Of a stretch of DNA of 36,307 nt, positions 5,492 through 33,833 are shown in pieces. The translations under genes were made by a program, and so were the position numbers. Every line of letters begins with the position of its first letter. The stretch's first letter is position 1. Source of the DNA: Clostridia bacterium (GTDB taxonomy: Bacteria; Bacillota; Clostridia; Oscillospirales; CAG-272); the NCBI GenBank assembly GCA_017455185.1, contig JAFTBN010000046.1:1-36307 (forward strand), in the 5' to 3' direction. Under the pieces are notes generated by a model. That model saw only the letters and a list, made by a program, of their open reading frames with translations, searched no databases and was not told where the DNA came from.

Positions 5492-6223
5492 ATGGCACAT
5501 ACAAGAACAGTAGCCGTAATCGGCGCTATGGATTGCGAAGTGAATGCATATCTTGCCTTGTTGGATCGGGTGCAGGAAAATCATTATTGCGGAATGACGG
5601 GATACGATGGGTTTCGGGGAAGCACACGCGTCATAGTGGCGAAAAGCGGGATTGGAAAAGTGAATGCAGCCCGGTGTACGCAGTGGCTGATTGATGCGTT
5701 TCATCCGGATGTGCTGATTAATGCCGGCATTGCGGGTGCACTCGGAAAAGGATTGACCATCGGGGATATTGTGGTGGCGGATTCCCTGATTCAGCATGAT
5801 TTTGATGCGAGAGGATGGGGGTACGCTCAGGGCAATCTGTGCGATCGGAGTGACCCGTCCCATCCGACGGTCTTCTATCCGGACAGGAATGTGACGGAAC
5901 GGATGAAGGAGGCTGTCCGTGAGCAGGCGGCCGGACATCAGTGCCGGGTGGGCAGAATCGTCAGCGGCGACGTGTTTATAGCAAGCAAAGAAAAGAAAAC
6001 CGAACTGCGCGAGTTGTTTGACGCGGAAGCAGGTGAAATGGAAGGCGCGGCGATCGCACAGACAGCCGAAAAAGCCGGGGTTCCATATGCGATTGTACGG
6101 GTCCTCTCGGACAACGGCGAAGGAGAAGCGGGCGAATTGATTGATTCGTTTGAGGAGGTTACCGCGGAGCAGTCCGGCCGGGTACTGAAAGTCTTTTTGG
6201 ATTTGTTGGAACGGGATCATTGA
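5492..6223 (+). CDS. mtnN: 5'-methylthioadenosine/S-adenosylhomocysteine nucleosidase
   Basis: Hydrolyses MTA and SAH to adenine plus the thioribose, in methionine salvage and the activated methyl cycle; cytoplasmic. 243 residues, close to the usual 230. Motifs of the Pfs/MTAN family: IGAMDCE with Glu16, KSGIGKVNAA (51-60), NAGIAG (77-82), GDVFIAS (159-165), EMEGAA with Met183 and Glu184, and LSDNGE with Asp207, matching the catalytic Glu12/Glu174/Asp197 of the E. coli enzyme. AGAGGGG precedes the ATG. It overlaps the next gene by four bases if that gene begins at the TTG at 6220, so the two are probably coupled. Family assignment is firm. Confidence 0.95.
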   Translation: MAHTRTVAVIGAMDCEVNAYLALLDRVQENHYCGMTGYDGFRGSTRVIVAKSGIGKVNAARCTQWLIDAFHPDVLINAGIAGALGKGLTIGDIVVADSLIQHDFDARGWGYAQGNLCDRSDPSHPTVFYPDRNVTERMKEAVREQAAGHQCRVGRIVSGDVFIASKEKKTELRELFDAEAGEMEGAAIAQTAEKAGVPYAIVRVLSDNGEGEAGELIDSFEEVTAEQSGRVLKVFLDLLERDH

Positions 6224-7614
6224 AACAAAATACCATGAACGATAAGAAACAAGAAGAAAAGGGAAGAAAAAGCAAGGAAGGGATATCCTTGCGCAAAATT
6301 CATCTGGCCTGGCTTCTTTTGACTGTTCTGATTTCTGCTTCGCTTTTGTCCACAACGATTTTATTGATTGTCGGGTTCCGGAATATGACCAGGGCAACCG
6401 ACGCATACATAGAGATGCAGCAGGCGGCTTACGATCTGATGGACGCCTCCGATTTGATGACCGAATCGGCCAGACGGTATGTGCTGACCCGGGAACAGAC
6501 CTATATGCGGGATTATTTTGAGGAGGCTTTGGAAACGCGCAGGCGTGAAAAGGCAGTGGAACTGCTTTCCGGACATGCGGAAGCCAAGAGTGCGTTTGAA
6601 CGGCTGAATCTGGCGCTGGAAAAATCCATCCGACTGATGGACAGGGAGTATTATGCGATGCGTCTTGCGGCCTTGGCTGAAGGTTACACGACGTATCCGG
6701 ACGCTCTGAATGATGTGGTCATCAGCGAAGAGGATTTGTCCGCAGGGAAAGAAGAAAAACTGGCAAAGGCCCAGATGATGCTGTTTGATGAGGAATACTG
6801 CACGCAAAAACAGCAGATCGAAACTGAAATGAATGCAAGTCTGCACGAACTGGATTCTTCCCTCAGAGAGTCGCAGAAGGGGTCTACCCGTTCGCTTCGG
6901 ATTTATTTTGCAATTGCAATAGCGGACATTGTACTGCTTTTGCTTGGAATTTTCTTTTTAACCTGGCTGGTGTCCTATTTGGGAATCGGCCCGATCCTGA
7001 AAGCGGTCGATGAAATCAAAAGCGAAAAGGAAATATCCATCAAGGGAGCCAAGGAATTCCGCTATTTGGCCAAGACATACAATAAGCTGTTTAATGTGTA
7101 CCGGAATAGCATCACCCGTTTGAATTATGCGGCTTCTCACGATGAACTGACCCGGGTTTACAACCGGGCGGGCTACGATGAAATGATTGCGACAATCGAT
7201 TTTGATTCCACGTATCTGATCGTCATCGATGCGGATGAGTTCAAGTCTGTAAACGACCGGTACGGGCATGAAATCGGAGACAAGGTGTTGCAATCCATTT
7301 CGGATTCCATCCGGAAGGTTTTCCGTCAGGAGGACTTTGTTTTTCGGGTCGGAGGAGATGAGTTTGTGGTTCTGATGACGCATGTGAACCGCGAATTCGA
7401 GGAACTGATCGGACGGAAGATCGAACAGATCAATGCACTGTTGCAGGCTGAACAGGAAAGGGGGCTTCCACCGATTTCCGTCAGCGCGGGTGCGGCTTTC
7501 AGCGAGGGCATCCAATCCGCTCAGGAATTGTTCAACCGGGCGGATGAAGCTCTGTACGAGGTCAAGCGGCACGGAAGGAAAGGAATCGCCTTCTATGACC
7601 GGAAATCAGATTGA
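6220..7614 (+). CDS. Membrane diguanylate cyclase (GGDEF) with intact I-site
   Basis: 464 residues. Makes c-di-GMP from two GTP. Basic N-terminus, TM1 about 29-53, an extracytoplasmic, mostly helical sensor region about 54-224 with no named domain recognised, TM2 about 226-250, a short HAMP-like linker, then GGDEF domain about 305-464 with DELTRVYNRAGYD, DADEFKSVND, and the signature GGDEF at 378-382. RQED at 369-372, five residues upstream, is a product-inhibition I-site (RxxD). No EAL domain. The start is ambiguous: TTG at 6220 overlaps the mtnN stop; ATG at 6235 lies in the same frame; neither has a strong ribosome-binding site. The signal sensed is unknown. Confidence 0.9.
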   Translation: MKQNTMNDKKQEEKGRKSKEGISLRKIHLAWLLLTVLISASLLSTTILLIVGFRNMTRATDAYIEMQQAAYDLMDASDLMTESARRYVLTREQTYMRDYFEEALETRRREKAVELLSGHAEAKSAFERLNLALEKSIRLMDREYYAMRLAALAEGYTTYPDALNDVVISEEDLSAGKEEKLAKAQMMLFDEEYCTQKQQIETEMNASLHELDSSLRESQKGSTRSLRIYFAIAIADIVLLLLGIFFLTWLVSYLGIGPILKAVDEIKSEKEISIKGAKEFRYLAKTYNKLFNVYRNSITRLNYAASHDELTRVYNRAGYDEMIATIDFDSTYLIVIDADEFKSVNDRYGHEIGDKVLQSISDSIRKVFRQEDFVFRVGGDEFVVLMTHVNREFEELIGRKIEQINALLQAEQERGLPPISVSAGAAFSEGIQSAQELFNRADEALYEVKRHGRKGIAFYDRKSD

Positions 7615-29961: not shown

Positions 29962-29990
29962 GGCCGGGGTTACGGTTCGTAACCCCGGCC
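29962..29990. terminator. Shared terminator between convergent dnaI-like and diguanylate cyclase genes
   Basis: Perfect 12-bp stem GGCCGGGGTTAC / GTAACCCCGGCC with a 5-base loop. The minus-strand side has TTTTCTTGTT; the plus side is weaker (ATACTGTTCTGTT). Confidence 0.8.
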
Positions 29991-30035: not shown

Positions 30036-31496
30036 TCAGGAGCCCCGGTGCTTCATATGCACCTTGCGCTCGTACATGTTGCTGTCTGCCCGACGGAAGA
30101 CGTCCTGGCAGGTCCGATCGGTCTGTGGGTCGAATTTCGCATACCCGATGGCAGCCATGCTCTTTTCCCAGGGCTTCAGGGAGGGATCTTTTTGCTTTGC
30201 CTCAAGTTTTTCGTTGAATTCGGCGACCAGCGCATCGATGTTCTGATAATCTTCGTTCTTAAGGATGACCATGAATTCGTCTCCGCCGATCCGGTAAACG
30301 GGGGAGTGCTTGAAGACTTTGCAGATCAGGGAGGACAGCGTCTTGATGGCGATGTCTCCGTGTTCGTGTCCGTAGGTGTCGTTTGTGCCCTTCAGATCGT
30401 TCAGATCCACCATGGCCAGTCCGAAGGCGGGATTGCCCGAGGCGGCCAGTTCATCCAGTAGTTTGATTGCACTGTCGTAGGCCGTTTTGCTCTTGACGCC
30501 CGTCAGGGGGTCGATGTTGGCAAGTTTGGTCATCTGTGCCGCGATGGTCTGGCTTTCCGACAGGTCGTCGGTGGCCTTGTTCAGGCGGAGGATGTGATTG
30601 TTTATATCCTCTTCCATCTTGGTCATGGAGGTGGCCAGGGCTCCGATTTCATCCTTGTTTTTGATGTGGAGTTTGGCGAAACTCTGGTGGTATCCGTCGG
30701 CCAAGGTCTGTCCGTTGAAGAAGTTCAATGCGGTATCGGAGAGCTGCCGCAGGGGATGGATGAGAATCCGGTTGACGATGAACATGGATATCACGCAGAT
30801 CAGGACAATCAGCACAAGGAGAAGACCGGTCAGTTCAAGAACAAAAATCTGACTTTCCCGGTTGATATTCAGCATGGATATGTCTACGAAAGCATATCCC
30901 AGGACGTTGTTTTCATCGTCAATAATCGGGGATCCCGCGGTAATCAGATGGCCGAATGCATCCGTGTTGGTCAGAAAGGGAGGGAACCCGTATGCCGGAT
31001 CTTCCAGGACGCGCCCATCCTCGGAATAGAATGGATCGATGCAACCCGGGAGACACTGTCCCTCGCTCGTGTCCGAATCGATGACGTATACGATTTGTTC
31101 GGCATACGTATCAACGAATCCCAGATAGATGCAGTCTACCTTGAAACTGTCTGTCAGCTCCCTTAAGTAGGAGAGAAGTTCATCGTATTCTTTTTCTTCG
31201 GTGACGGGAGTGAAATGATCTGTATAGGCTTTAAAGGCTTCGCTTTGCCATTCTTCGCTGCTGACTTTCGGTTCGGTCTTGTGATAGATTTCTTCGGTCA
31301 GCTGACGGAGATGCAGATATTGGGTTTTGTCGATTACTTTCGCTGCCGTGGCTGCCGTGGTGCTTGCTTTGTCCTTGTAATAATCAACGGCAATGTTCAC
31401 AATGGTTCGACCGCTCAGAATCACCGAAGCCGTAGCCAGAGTCAGGCAAAAGGCAACAATCATTAAGATGGTCTTGACTCGAATGTTTAATTTCAT
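30036..31496 (-). CDS. Membrane diguanylate cyclase (GGDEF) without I-site, riboswitch controlled
   Basis: 486 residues from ATG 31496. TM1 about 7-30; an extracytoplasmic sensor about 31-225, with a Cache-like pattern (YVIDSDTSEGQCLPGCIDPF, ITAGSPIIDDENNVLGYAFV); TM2 about 223-245; HAMP about 246-300; coiled linker; GGDEF domain about 320-486 with DPLTGVKSKTAYD, VDLNDLKGTNDTYGHEHGD and the signature GGDEF at 404-408. The residues before it (FKHSPVYRIGGDEF) lack RxxD, so product inhibition at the protein level is not expected. Its 210-base leader carries a c-di-GMP-I riboswitch and a terminator, so control by the product seems to be moved to the RNA. The ATG has no good ribosome-binding site; AGGAG lies 18 bases upstream. 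Confidence 0.92.
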   Translation of the reverse strand: MKLNIRVKTILMIVAFCLTLATASVILSGRTIVNIAVDYYKDKASTTAATAAKVIDKTQYLHLRQLTEEIYHKTEPKVSSEEWQSEAFKAYTDHFTPVTEEKEYDELLSYLRELTDSFKVDCIYLGFVDTYAEQIVYVIDSDTSEGQCLPGCIDPFYSEDGRVLEDPAYGFPPFLTNTDAFGHLITAGSPIIDDENNVLGYAFVDISMLNINRESQIFVLELTGLLLVLIVLICVISMFIVNRILIHPLRQLSDTALNFFNGQTLADGYHQSFAKLHIKNKDEIGALATSMTKMEEDINNHILRLNKATDDLSESQTIAAQMTKLANIDPLTGVKSKTAYDSAIKLLDELAASGNPAFGLAMVDLNDLKGTNDTYGHEHGDIAIKTLSSLICKVFKHSPVYRIGGDEFMVILKNEDYQNIDALVAEFNEKLEAKQKDPSLKPWEKSMAAIGYAKFDPQTDRTCQDVFRRADSNMYERKVHMKHRGS

Positions 31497-31570
31497 ACGA
31501 TTGGTCTGTTTCGGCTCCTGTGGGATTTGATCGGAATGAGTATGGCGGCATGACAAGGGCGGGACCGAAT

Positions 31571-31617
31571 GAAAAAGAAAGAACAGGCGGCATGCAGCGA
31601 GGTATACCGCCTGTTCT
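31571..31617 (-). terminator. Riboswitch expression-platform terminator
   Basis: AGAACAGGCGG / CCGCCTGTTCT, an 11-bp perfect stem with a 16-base loop (31580-31590 with 31607-31617), followed on the minus strand by TTTCTTTTTC. It lies between the c-di-GMP aptamer and the diguanylate cyclase start. Confidence 0.9.
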
Positions 31618-31633
31618 GTATTTAACAGGGAAA

Positions 31634-31702
31634 GTGCAACTGGCTGCCTGTGTGAGGCCCTATAGCTTTGCGTCGCCGGATTGCTCCGGTTTTGCCGAAC
31701 TA
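31634..31702 (-). promoter_or_regulatory. c-di-GMP-I (GEMM) riboswitch aptamer
   Basis: Read on the minus strand, the leader has the conserved elements of the GEMM-I class in order: CGGCAAAACC, a short stem CCGGA-GCAA-TCCGG with a GNRA tetraloop, the hallmark GACGCAAAGC, then TATAGGGCCT-CACAC-AGG, and CAGCCAGTTGCAC. It begins about 10 bases after the predicted transcription start and is followed 16 bases later by a terminator, the usual layout for transcriptional control. Whether ligand binding turns the gene on or off cannot be decided by eye; feedback repression would be the simple expectation. Confidence 0.88.
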
Positions 31703-31715
31703 TTCATTTTTTGTC

Positions 31716-31744
31716 ATTATAAACCAAAAAGTGGCGTTTGTCAA
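31716..31744 (-). promoter_or_regulatory. Promoter of the riboswitch-diguanylate cyclase unit
   Basis: Minus strand TTGACA (31744-31739), 17-base spacer, TATAAT (31721-31716): both boxes perfect. Confidence 0.85.
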
Positions 31745-31793: not shown

Positions 31794-33833
31794 TTATCGT
31801 TTCTGTCCCTTTTTCTTCAAAAGAAGGAGTCCAAGCCCCGAAAGAGCAAGCGGCAAAAGAAGTCCGCAAGATCTGAGAAGGGAGGAGCAGCCGCTCTTGC
31901 CGATCTTGGGTTCATCGGAGACCGGCGCGGTTTCGTCCGTCGGTGGCGGGGTTTCGGATTCGGGAAGAGGGGATACGGATTCCGGTTCGGACTCTTCTTC
32001 AGTCTCCCTGTCGGGTTCCTCCACCGGCGTTTCCCTTTGGATCTCCTTGCGGATCGTCAGCGAATCAATCAGGTCATCCGGATGGAGGTTGTCATAAATC
32101 TCCAGAGTCAGCTCGCCGTCTTCAGCCCGGAGCAGTCCGTAGGTGAAAACCGCTTTTCCGTTATCCGAGCAGGTGAACTCCATAAAGGAGAAGGGCCAGT
32201 TGGGATTGGAAGAGGTGTTGCCGAACTGCCACATGCGGGAAGACGTGCCCATATTGACGTAGACCGTCCCCTGCGGATTGAGGTAGGCCCCTTCGTCGGA
32301 CCGTTCCACATCCACGATCTCCCCGTCGCGGATGAAGCGGGACCGTCCGTAAATGTGGGAATGCCCGGTCAGGCAAAGGTCGGGTTTGTAGCGGTCGAAC
32401 AGGGTGATGAAGGACTTGTAAAAGGTGTTGCAGTAATCCAGTGCGTCGCCTGAGTCCGAGGTATATCCTTTCAGATAGTTTCCGTAAATGGCTTCATGGA
32501 AACAAACCACCATCCAGTCGTAATCCGGATAATCCTCAAGGGCCTGCTCGAAGGTCTTGGCGTGGTCTTCTTCCTTGTAGTTGATATCGGTGATGGACAG
32601 CATGATGAAAAGCGTGTTGCCCGACTTGAAGTAGTAATCGCTGATGCCCTGGGAACCGGGGAAGACTTCGTTCGGAACGTTGGTGTAGTGGGGAAGGTTT
32701 TTCGAGGCGGGGGACAGGTCGTGGTTGCCGTTGATCGGAGCCAGGACAACGTCCGTCAGGTCGGATGCTCCGAAAAAACCGTCCAGATAGGCGGTGTTGC
32801 TCGTATCTTGCATCTGGTCGCCCAGGGAGAGAATCAGGTCTGCGTCGCCCCGGTCAAGCAGCTGTCCCAGCGTGATTTCCCAGTTGTCGACGGACACCTG
32901 GAGTTTGTCTGCCCAGGAAGGATGGTCGATGACATGAATATCGCTCAGGACATAAGCGGAAGTGGTCGTGTTGCTCGACGTGGATACGGTAAAAGGTCCT
33001 GCCTGCCTGCCGTCGTATCCGACACAGTAGCGGTAGGATTTTCCGGGTTTCAGTCCTGTAACGGTGACTTTGCAGGAGTAACGGAACAGGAGGTCGGAAC
33101 CGGAAATTCCAATGGGATTTGCGTAATCATACGTTCCTTCAAAACGGGTTTTGGAGGATTCGAAATCCTGAGCGGACGGTGCGATTTCCACATAGGGGTT
33201 TTCGGGAAGATAGGGGGAAATCCAATTGAAATTGAGTGAGGTTGTATCGCTTCCGGGCTGCACGGTGATGTCAAAAATGGGAGGGTCGGTAATGACGGTG
33301 TCGGAGGACGGCCCGGAGTTAGCCGAACCGACGGGTATTTTGGTGCCGTCCTCTTTGACGGCCTGGATGTTGCGCAGGGCAACCATGATCTGCGGGTCGG
33401 TGGAAGTCGTATTGAATATACGGACGCGCTGGAATGTCTGAGGGTTGAATGCACCGGTCGAACCATCCCCGGGATCTACCGCGGCAGAGGGGCTTCCGTC
33501 CGACAGCTTCAGGGTGACGGTGTTCCAGCCGTCTTTGAGAGAAGGCCATTTGCTGACGCCCGTGTATTGCAGTTCCTGCCAGTCATTGCGCCAGTGGGAA
33601 CCGAATTCTATGGCCGAAATGCGGAAATTGGAGGCTTTGTCGATGAAAAAATCAAACTGAATCGCTGTGGCTCCCGTGATGTCAGTCGGCTCGAAATGAA
33701 TCAGCCAGACGGACGGGAGGGATTTGACGATGACTTTCCCTTGTTCATAGTCGTATTCTTCGGCGGAAGCGGAGAAAATCAGACTTGTCATGACAAGGCA
33801 AAACAGAAGAATGAAAGCGAATATCTTTTTCAT
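31794..33833 (-). CDS. Secreted, C-terminally anchored metallophosphoesterase (purple-acid-phosphatase-like)
   Basis: 679 residues; AGGAGG lies before ATG 33833. Cleavable signal peptide to about residue 24 (SLIFSASA-E). Residues 25-175 form a beta-sandwich like a carbohydrate-binding module; about 180-285 is a fibronectin-III-like domain as in purple acid phosphatases. The calcineurin-type phosphoesterase domain has all metal motifs: Asp298-x-His300 (DIHV), Gly-Asp339 (SLGDQMQD), GNHD (369-372), a His in CFHEAIYG, and GHSH (His491, His493). A Pro/Glu/Ser/Thr-rich spacer (about 595-650) leads to a C-terminal TM segment LLLPLALSGLGLLLLKKKG; no LPxTG. It should hydrolyse phosphate esters outside the cell. 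It has its own promoter; no clear terminator follows. Confidence 0.9.
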   Translation of the reverse strand: MKKIFAFILLFCLVMTSLIFSASAEEYDYEQGKVIVKSLPSVWLIHFEPTDITGATAIQFDFFIDKASNFRISAIEFGSHWRNDWQELQYTGVSKWPSLKDGWNTVTLKLSDGSPSAAVDPGDGSTGAFNPQTFQRVRIFNTTSTDPQIMVALRNIQAVKEDGTKIPVGSANSGPSSDTVITDPPIFDITVQPGSDTTSLNFNWISPYLPENPYVEIAPSAQDFESSKTRFEGTYDYANPIGISGSDLLFRYSCKVTVTGLKPGKSYRYCVGYDGRQAGPFTVSTSSNTTTSAYVLSDIHVIDHPSWADKLQVSVDNWEITLGQLLDRGDADLILSLGDQMQDTSNTAYLDGFFGASDLTDVVLAPINGNHDLSPASKNLPHYTNVPNEVFPGSQGISDYYFKSGNTLFIMLSITDINYKEEDHAKTFEQALEDYPDYDWMVVCFHEAIYGNYLKGYTSDSGDALDYCNTFYKSFITLFDRYKPDLCLTGHSHIYGRSRFIRDGEIVDVERSDEGAYLNPQGTVYVNMGTSSRMWQFGNTSSNPNWPFSFMEFTCSDNGKAVFTYGLLRAEDGELTLEIYDNLHPDDLIDSLTIRKEIQRETPVEEPDRETEEESEPESVSPLPESETPPPTDETAPVSDEPKIGKSGCSSLLRSCGLLLPLALSGLGLLLLKKKGQKR

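What the first reader, a model, noticed from the sequence alone, without database searches (positions are those of the whole stretch)
30036..31744. Diguanylate cyclase under its own c-di-GMP riboswitch, with I-site lost
A perfect promoter, a GEMM-I aptamer with the hallmark GACGCAAAGC and GNRA-capped stem, and a strong terminator precede a GGDEF gene. The enzyme lacks the RxxD inhibition site, while the other cyclase in this window (6220-7614) keeps it and has no riboswitch. Feedback seems to have moved from protein to RNA, giving a c-di-GMP homeostat in one transcript.
Basis: partly seen in the sequence, partly recalled or inferred. Interest (0 to 1): 0.75.

Follow-up and report, generated by a model that had tools for sequence, protein, structure and literature searches.

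The report
Riboswitch-controlled c-di-GMP synthase gene
The gene for a predicted c-di-GMP-making enzyme sits behind an RNA leader that matches a known c-di-GMP sensor and likely turns the gene down when the signal is plentiful, a known kind of feedback loop; the enzyme's missing self-inhibition site is the norm among its relatives, with or without the RNA.

Summary
Observation confirmed. Window 31706-31632 (-) is a c-di-GMP-I (GEMM-I) aptamer (50.1 bits, cut-off 35). It lies behind a 12/12 sigma-70-type promoter match and ahead of a strong terminator-like hairpin and a GGDEF gene (486 aa, likely ATG 31496). RxxD is absent there and present in the 6220-7614 cyclase.

The claimed trade of I-site for riboswitch is not supported. 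RxxD is absent in 31 of 31 orthologues, 24 of them without a detected riboswitch; outgroup-rooted trees nest the riboswitch clade inside. In seven genomes, 28 of 33 judgeable GGDEF domains without riboswitch also lack RxxD. Class-wide, both riboswitch-linked cyclases sampled keep it.

Feedback gains comparative support inside the family. Phosphodiesterase leaders use the aptamer's own 3' strand as terminator arm (ON design, 14 of 16 hits); cyclase leaders do not (0 of 9). That fits OFF at the synthase and ON at the hydrolases, both negative feedback. The pattern fails class-wide (3 of 21 phosphodiesterases ON), and the window's predicted antiterminator alone is no better than chance (p=0.11).

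Verdict: a real, ordinary GEMM-I leader, likely an OFF switch; the sign-matched wiring is the lead worth testing.

The parts
31716..31744 (-). sigma-70-type promoter match TTGACA-17-TATAAT, 12/12
   Evidence: a start of transcription near 31709 is inferred from spacing
31632..31706 (-). c-di-GMP-I (GEMM-I) aptamer; GNRA hairpin 31689-31676; P3 31667-31638; G 31696, A 31669, C 31636 at the positions of Vc2 G20, A47, C92
   Evidence: G20 and C92 as specificity positions from mutants named in PMC7288161 (passages); A47 and the mapping to Vc2 numbering are recalled
31594..31647 (-). predicted antiterminator: GCAGC 31647-31643 with GCUGC 31598-31594, nested around CCUGUU 31629-31624 with AACAGG 31615-31610
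   Evidence: 10-12 expected pairs when the transcript is 116-122 nt long; not better than shuffles on its own: 55/300, p=0.114, duplex test p=0.79
31571..31617 (-). terminator-like hairpin: 14-bp stem 31617-31580 and U-rich tail 31579-31571; starts 14 nt past the aptamer model's end and shares no aptamer strand
30036..31496 (-). predicted membrane-bound diguanylate cyclase, 486 aa: TM helix, about 150-residue domain without a Pfam name (predicted extracytoplasmic), TM helix, coiled coil, GGDEF
30051..30521 (-). GGDEF domain with active-site GGDEF and the DLNDLKGTNDTYGHEHGD signature; RxxD replaced by F-K-H-S (30314-30303)
29962..29990 (-). terminator-like hairpin after the gene, so the unit looks monocistronic
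6220..7614 (+). second diguanylate cyclase of the window, with RxxD (RQED) and no riboswitch

Best explanation
A c-di-GMP-I riboswitch aptamer with its own promoter-like sequence and a terminator-like hairpin forms the leader of a predicted membrane-bound diguanylate cyclase gene, and binding of c-di-GMP likely lets the terminator form so that the enzyme's product would lower the enzyme's own synthesis. Shown by sequence: promoter match, aptamer, terminator-like hairpin placed beyond the aptamer, GGDEF gene, no RxxD site. Inferred: at low c-di-GMP the aptamer's 3' strand and the linker pair with the 5' half of the terminator (antitermination, ON); bound c-di-GMP holds the aptamer, frees that half, and transcription stops (OFF). 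The absence of the I-site is shared with relatives that have no riboswitch and is most simply an older trait, not part of the switch; the RNA was probably added later in one clade of this cyclase family.
For: Covariance-model match well above cut-off. The aptamer lies within 400 nt upstream in 7 of 31 orthologous cyclases; all 7 fall in one 9-row clade (99/97; 97/92 with phosphatase sensor domains as outgroup), and the six others share 38-44% identity with the window's protein (riboswitches). No hairpin meeting the ON rule uses the aptamer's strand in any of 12 riboswitch-linked cyclase leaders (9 of the family; L209, L214, L221 from named genomes), whereas 14 of 16 phosphodiesterase hits of the same family have one (over genes 0/12 v 13/14, Fisher p=2.7e-6; shuffled leaders 23 of 219). 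Folding of growing transcripts gives 10-12 pairs between aptamer/linker and the terminator's 5' half at 116-122 nt, and the cost of keeping the native aptamer rises from 5.5 to 9.5 kcal/mol there. Over 13 leaders (12 cyclases plus the hybrid G076) that pairing exceeds shuffles weakly (combined p=0.029).
Against: For this leader alone the antiterminator is not beyond chance (55 of 300 shuffles as good; p=0.114; simple duplex p=0.79). At full length the terminator wins with or without the aptamer, so any switching must be kinetic. The free-RNA minimum pairs 5' AUAGUU with AGCUAU and disfavours the native P3 by about 5 kcal/mol. Two of the 12 cyclase leaders (G122:C40, L214) have only weak terminator candidates (-6.5 and -7.2 kcal/mol). 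The sign pattern fails outside the family: 3 of 21 phosphodiesterases and 1 of 2 cyclases are ON-type among 90 class-wide hits. Family genes are related, so p-values overstate independence. Ligand binding and enzyme activity are untested.
Confidence: 0.68

Rival explanations
1. ON switch: bound c-di-GMP prevents the terminator, so the cyclase feeds its own synthesis (positive feedback, a bistable latch).
For: Many other riboswitch leaders of the family are called ON-type (31 of 49 evaluable hits of other or unclassified genes); one class-wide cyclase leader is ON-type (L297).
Against: The terminator starts 14 nt after the aptamer, and no hairpin using the aptamer's 3' strand precedes a U tract here; 0 of 12 riboswitch-linked cyclase leaders of the family and its orthologues are ON-type.
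Confidence: 0.1
2. The aptamer binds c-di-GMP but the terminator is a fixed attenuator that ignores it, so there is no feedback.
For: The terminator (-22.5 kcal/mol) is compatible with the aptamer and wins at full length either way; the antiterminator is not beyond chance for this leader.
Against: Aptamer and a downstream terminator-like hairpin recur in most of the distant riboswitch-bearing orthologues although the hairpin sequence itself differs; combined antiterminator signal p=0.029.
Confidence: 0.17
3. One reading: the I-site was lost because the riboswitch took over feedback.
For: In the window the riboswitch cyclase lacks RxxD and the other keeps it; 9 of 9 riboswitch-linked GGDEF domains of the seven genomes lack it.
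Against: 28 of 33 judgeable canonical GGDEF domains without riboswitch also lack RxxD; 0 of 31 orthologues have it, 24 of them without a detected riboswitch; the five RxxD domains form one separate clade (99/93); the riboswitch-linked cyclases L287 (RKVD) and L297 (RQVD) keep it.
Confidence: 0.05

Closest known systems
c-di-GMP-I (GEMM-I) riboswitch, RF01051
   Same: Sequence and structure model, GNRA tetraloop, guanine and cytosine at the ligand-contact positions; reviews state that GEMM RNAs lie upstream of genes for DGC and PDE proteins (PMC3971182, passages; PMC12564702, passages).
   Different: Nothing in the aptamer is unusual; a flanking P1 helix is at best weak here and is not in the Rfam model.
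Cd1 riboswitch of Clostridioides difficile (transcriptional OFF switch)
   Same: Terminator downstream of the aptamer, with an antiterminator that would use an aptamer strand; Cd1 is described as a transcriptional OFF switch with a T/A/H strand exchange (PMC9262584, passages).
   Different: Different sequence and a different target: in the C. difficile review seen (PMC11477304, passages) the listed c-di-GMP-I targets are flagellar, surface, protease and hypothetical genes and antisense RNAs, and a find for 'diguanylate cyclase', 'phosphodiesterase' and 'GGDEF' in its text returned 0.
PleD/WspR-type GGDEF cyclases with RxxD I-site
   Same: GGDEF fold and catalytic signature; RxxD in WspR is R242-D245 (PMC7288161, passages).
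   Different: No RxxD here: F-K-H-S; HSPV[FY]R before GGDEF in 22 of 27 named orthologues.
pilM-type GEMM ON switches (c-GAMP)
   Same: The design seen at phosphodiesterase leaders of this family: an aptamer strand is part of the terminator (PMC9262584, passages).
   Different: Not the design of the window's leader, and pilM senses c-GAMP.

Membership tests
c-di-GMP-I riboswitch (RF01051) | covariance-model score above the gathering score | tested here: met
   50.1 v 35 bits
c-di-GMP-I riboswitch (RF01051) | GNRA-capped hairpin and GACGCAAAGC core | tested here: met
c-di-GMP-I riboswitch (RF01051) | G at the Vc2 G20 position (c-di-GMP rather than cGAMP type) and C at C92 | tested here: met
   G 31696, C 31636 from the alignment; G20A and G20A/C92U mutants named in PMC7288161 (passages); mapping of numbers recalled
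c-di-GMP-I riboswitch (RF01051) | binds c-di-GMP | not testable with these tools
   needs in-line probing or ITC
Transcriptional OFF switch (Cd1-like) | terminator not sharing the aptamer strand | tested here: met
   no ON-type hairpin; terminator at +14 to +52 after the aptamer
Transcriptional OFF switch (Cd1-like) | antiterminator that uses an aptamer strand | tested here: inconclusive
   predicted, but 55/300 shuffles as good, p=0.114, p=0.79 in the duplex test
Diguanylate cyclase (PF00990) | domain score and intact GGDEF active-site motif | tested here: met
   87.2 bits v 23.8; GGDEF, DLNDLKGTNDTYGHEHGD
Diguanylate cyclase (PF00990) | makes c-di-GMP | not testable with these tools
   no assay; not the Ser variant recalled for Hypr cGAMP synthases (Asp kept in GHEHGD)
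I-site-regulated cyclase | RxxD five residues before GGDEF | tested here: not met
   F395-K-H-S398

The most novel reading that the evidence does not exclude
In this bacterial family, whose cyclases have mostly dispensed with the protein I-site, c-di-GMP level is held by RNA on both arms of turnover: OFF riboswitches on the synthases and ON riboswitches on EAL and HD-type hydrolases, with the expression platform's sign matched to the enzyme. In the window's genome this leader is the only c-di-GMP receptor recognised by the four models searched, so c-di-GMP would there be read by RNA only to control its own synthesis.
Probability: 0.3. Interest if true: 0.62.

Novelty: new member of a known kind. 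Interest (0 to 1): 0.4.

Why it matters
If the sign rule holds, a whole family of bacteria would set its second-messenger level by riboswitches wired oppositely on synthesis and breakdown, where textbook cyclases use allosteric inhibition. It also warns against reading a missing I-site next to a riboswitch as a swap: here the absence is general and shared with relatives that have no riboswitch.

Tried and rejected
I-site/riboswitch trade: tested three ways (matched genomes; orthologue trees; class-wide cyclases) and rejected. The tree is midpoint-rooted and could not by itself say which came first; others (phosphatase sensor domains as outgroup; 35 other GGDEF domains as outgroup) were added for that. 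Both nest the riboswitch clade inside the family (97/92; only 88/84), but an old riboswitch lost several times is not excluded. Of the 24 orthologue rows without a detected riboswitch, three (L173, L196, L210) have under 250 nt of upstream sequence.

Antiterminator by simple duplex of P3 and terminator half: p=0.79 for the window, no support; the ensemble version is weak.

Sign rule as a general law: rejected class-wide. The 90 hits are 30 fetched by the tool and 60 I took from the top of the list (best scores; about six tandem partners or contig-edge hits skipped, at least three tandem pairs still counted twice). Classes came from small home-made profiles: of the 21 called PDE, 8 have EAL (1 ON) and 13 only an HD-like match (2 ON), three of these with a gene more than 380 nt away; the HD ones may not all be phosphodiesterases. 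The scanner was tuned to the family's design.

The scanner errs: 23 of 219 shuffled leaders are called ON; G063:C81 (flgB-like) is called ON but reads by eye as an OFF design; PDE leader G066:C12 is missed but reads by eye as ON; the second PDE miss is the upstream partner of a tandem (G126:C76). Only 17 first genes of the family hits were scanned with Pfam, picked by eye or by GGDEF/EAL motif, so the 'other' class may hide turnover enzymes. One search used stricter filters that lose weak matches.

Perfect promoter as a sign of special strength: 20 of 76 family hits have 12/12.

Rows dropped or moved: G076 was first counted as a cyclase, then found to be GGDEF-GGDEF-EAL; it is left out of the cyclase counts but is one of the 9 riboswitch-linked domains and one of the 13 leaders. 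G274:C7 starts too close to the motif to judge RxxD (43 to 42 canonical domains). G257:C197 carries the riboswitch but its gene runs off the contig: in the platform counts, not in the I-site counts or trees. L220 is a phosphatase (28 to 27).

Literature searches. No listing (titles and starts of abstracts) described a sign rule for DGC and PDE riboswitches. Passages only were read of PMC9262584, PMC9481103, PMC6200980, PMC11477304, PMC12564702, PMC3971182 and PMC7288161. The 2007 paper that first described GEMM was not held.

Full report
WHAT IS THERE. On the minus strand a 12/12 sigma-70-type promoter match (31744-31716) is followed within 10 nt by a c-di-GMP-I aptamer (31706-31632, 50.1 bits against a cut-off of 35), a 14-nt linker, a terminator-like hairpin of -22.5 kcal/mol with a U-rich tail (31617-31571) and a GGDEF gene whose likely start is ATG 31496. 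A terminator-like hairpin follows the gene and the next gene downstream runs the other way, so the unit looks monocistronic. The upstream gene on the same strand (31794-33833, a metallophosphoesterase) ends about 50 bp before the promoter and the scan shows no terminator between, so some readthrough is possible. The aptamer has the GNRA loop, GACGCAAAGC, and G, A and C at the positions that I match from memory with Vc2 G20, A47 and C92; the mutants G20A and G20A/C92U are named in PMC7288161 (passages).

THE ENZYME. 486 residues; an AlphaFold model from 23 orthologues (mean pLDDT 87.7, pTM 0.50) shows a long first helix, an alpha-beta domain, a second TM-length helix, coiled coil and GGDEF. The 50 listed PDB fold matches are nearly all GGDEF-containing proteins and do not name the sensor domain. 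The active site is intact. RxxD is replaced by F-K-H-S before PVYRI-GGDEF. The other cyclase of the window has RQED there.

IS I-SITE LOSS TIED TO THE RIBOSWITCH? No. (1) In the seven genomes that hold a riboswitch-linked canonical GGDEF gene with a complete domain I collected all 64 GGDEF matches: 43 have a canonical GG[DE]E[FY], 42 can be judged. RxxD is present in 0 of 9 with and 5 of 33 without riboswitch (Fisher p=0.57). The nine include G076, a GGDEF-GGDEF-EAL hybrid. (2) A profile of the sensor domain found 28 loci in one genome per GTDB species, 27 of them cyclases. RF01051 lies within 400 nt upstream of 6 of 27; RxxD is present in 0 of 27. With the window and three further members of the family there are 31 rows, 0 with RxxD. 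The 7 riboswitch rows and 2 others form one clade (99/97). Rooted with phosphatase sensor domains this clade is nested among the other 22 rows (97/92); in a GGDEF tree with 35 other domains it is nested too, with weaker support (88/84), and the five RxxD domains form a separate clade (99/93). So the site was most likely missing before the riboswitch came; one gain and two losses of the riboswitch is the simplest count, though an old riboswitch lost repeatedly is not excluded, and three of the 24 rows without it have short upstream sequence. (3) In 90 class-wide riboswitch hits the two DGC-only genes found, L287 (RKVD) and L297 (RQVD), both keep RxxD; a GGDEF-EAL hybrid there (L292) does not.

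WHICH WAY DOES IT SWITCH? Among 295 genomes of the family 39 carry 76 matches to RF01051, one of them under the cut-off. I fetched all 76 (two are cut too short to judge) and read the first gene. Turnover enzymes recognised: 9 cyclase hits in 3 architectures, 16 phosphodiesterase hits for 14 genes (9 EAL-only, 2 PAS-GGDEF-EAL, 3 HD) and the hybrid G076. In phosphodiesterase leaders the conserved aptamer strand (AGCCAGUUGC or a variant) is itself the 5' arm of a hairpin followed by a U tract: a ligand-bound aptamer excludes that terminator, an ON design. A scan with fixed rules calls ON in 14 of 16 phosphodiesterase hits, 31 of 49 other evaluable hits, 0 of 9 cyclase hits, and 23 of 219 shuffled leaders (cyclases against all other evaluable hits, Fisher p=9e-5). 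Three further cyclase leaders from named genomes are not ON-type either. In most cyclase leaders a terminator-like hairpin lies beyond the aptamer (weak candidates only in G122:C40 and L214), the layout of the Cd1 OFF switch (PMC9262584, passages). In locus L209 both layouts occur on one contig: the cyclase leader is not ON-type, the next riboswitch, before a surface-protein-like gene, is.

FOLDING. For the window, truncated transcripts of 116-122 nt prefer an extended hairpin in which aptamer GCAGC pairs with GCUGC in the terminator loop, around CCUGUU/AACAGG. It would be broken by a ligand-held aptamer, as an OFF switch needs. Alone this is no better than chance (55 of 300 as good; p=0.114; duplex test p=0.79); over 13 leaders (12 cyclases and G076) combined p=0.029. 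At full length the terminator wins with or without the aptamer, so switching would depend on timing. OFF is my reading at about 0.7; it is inferred, not shown.

AGAINST. The sign pattern does not extend to the class: 3 of 21 phosphodiesterases and 1 of 2 cyclases are ON-type among 90 hits, and some HD-domain leaders there look Cd1-like by eye. In-family genes are related, so the p-values overstate independence. In C. difficile, raised c-di-GMP gave a trend to more transcription of GGDEF-EAL genes, which its authors read as buffering, but one such gene fell 5.1-fold and GGDEF genes showed no trend (PMC6200980, passages).

GENOME CONTEXT. The genome (2.1 Mb, 83 contigs, 91.5% complete) has 7 GGDEF and 6 EAL matches, one RF01051, and no match for c-di-GMP-II, PilZ or MshEN (the c-di-GMP-II search rang in no control genome either, so its absence is not shown). 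This leader is thus the only c-di-GMP receptor recognised by these four models; other receptor kinds were not sought.

KNOWN OR NEW. Reviews already place GEMM RNAs upstream of DGC and PDE genes (PMC3971182, PMC12564702; passages). This is a new member of a known kind. The family-level sign-matched wiring is what I would follow up; I saw no description of it in the nine searches listed in Tried and rejected.

Noticed in passing
L174-L184: The cyclase's sensor domain also sits on proteins of about 540-700 aa in which no GGDEF was found; by eye they end in a PP2C/SpoIIE-like phosphatase and, in the longer ones, an ATPase-like domain. The same sensor seems to feed two different outputs.
   Followed up: partly
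L063 (G103:C16) and L085 (G126:C76): Tandem c-di-GMP-I aptamers upstream of EAL-only phosphodiesterase genes; in G103:C16 each aptamer has its own ON-type terminator.
   Followed up: partly
L209 2344-2418 and 4103-4182: Two c-di-GMP-I riboswitches on one contig: a non-ON leader before the cyclase and an ON-type leader before a repeat-rich surface-protein-like gene.
   Followed up: partly
G274:C101 and G235:C96: Orthologues of the window's cyclase lie convergently next to an RxxD cyclase; in the window the two cyclases are about 22 kb apart on one contig.
   Followed up: no
L069 (G063:C81): A flgB-like gene whose leader has GCAACUG, able to pair with the aptamer's CAGUUGC or with a later CAGUUGC before a U tract: by eye a three-strand OFF design, although the scanner called it ON because the long hairpin includes both.
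   Followed up: partly
window genome G000: No PilZ or MshEN match and a single c-di-GMP-I riboswitch despite 7 GGDEF and 6 EAL matches: what reads c-di-GMP in this organism is unclear.
   Followed up: partly
L172 3045-3236: Weak T-box-like match (45.4 bits, below the cut-off of 93) near a cyclase orthologue.
   Followed up: no
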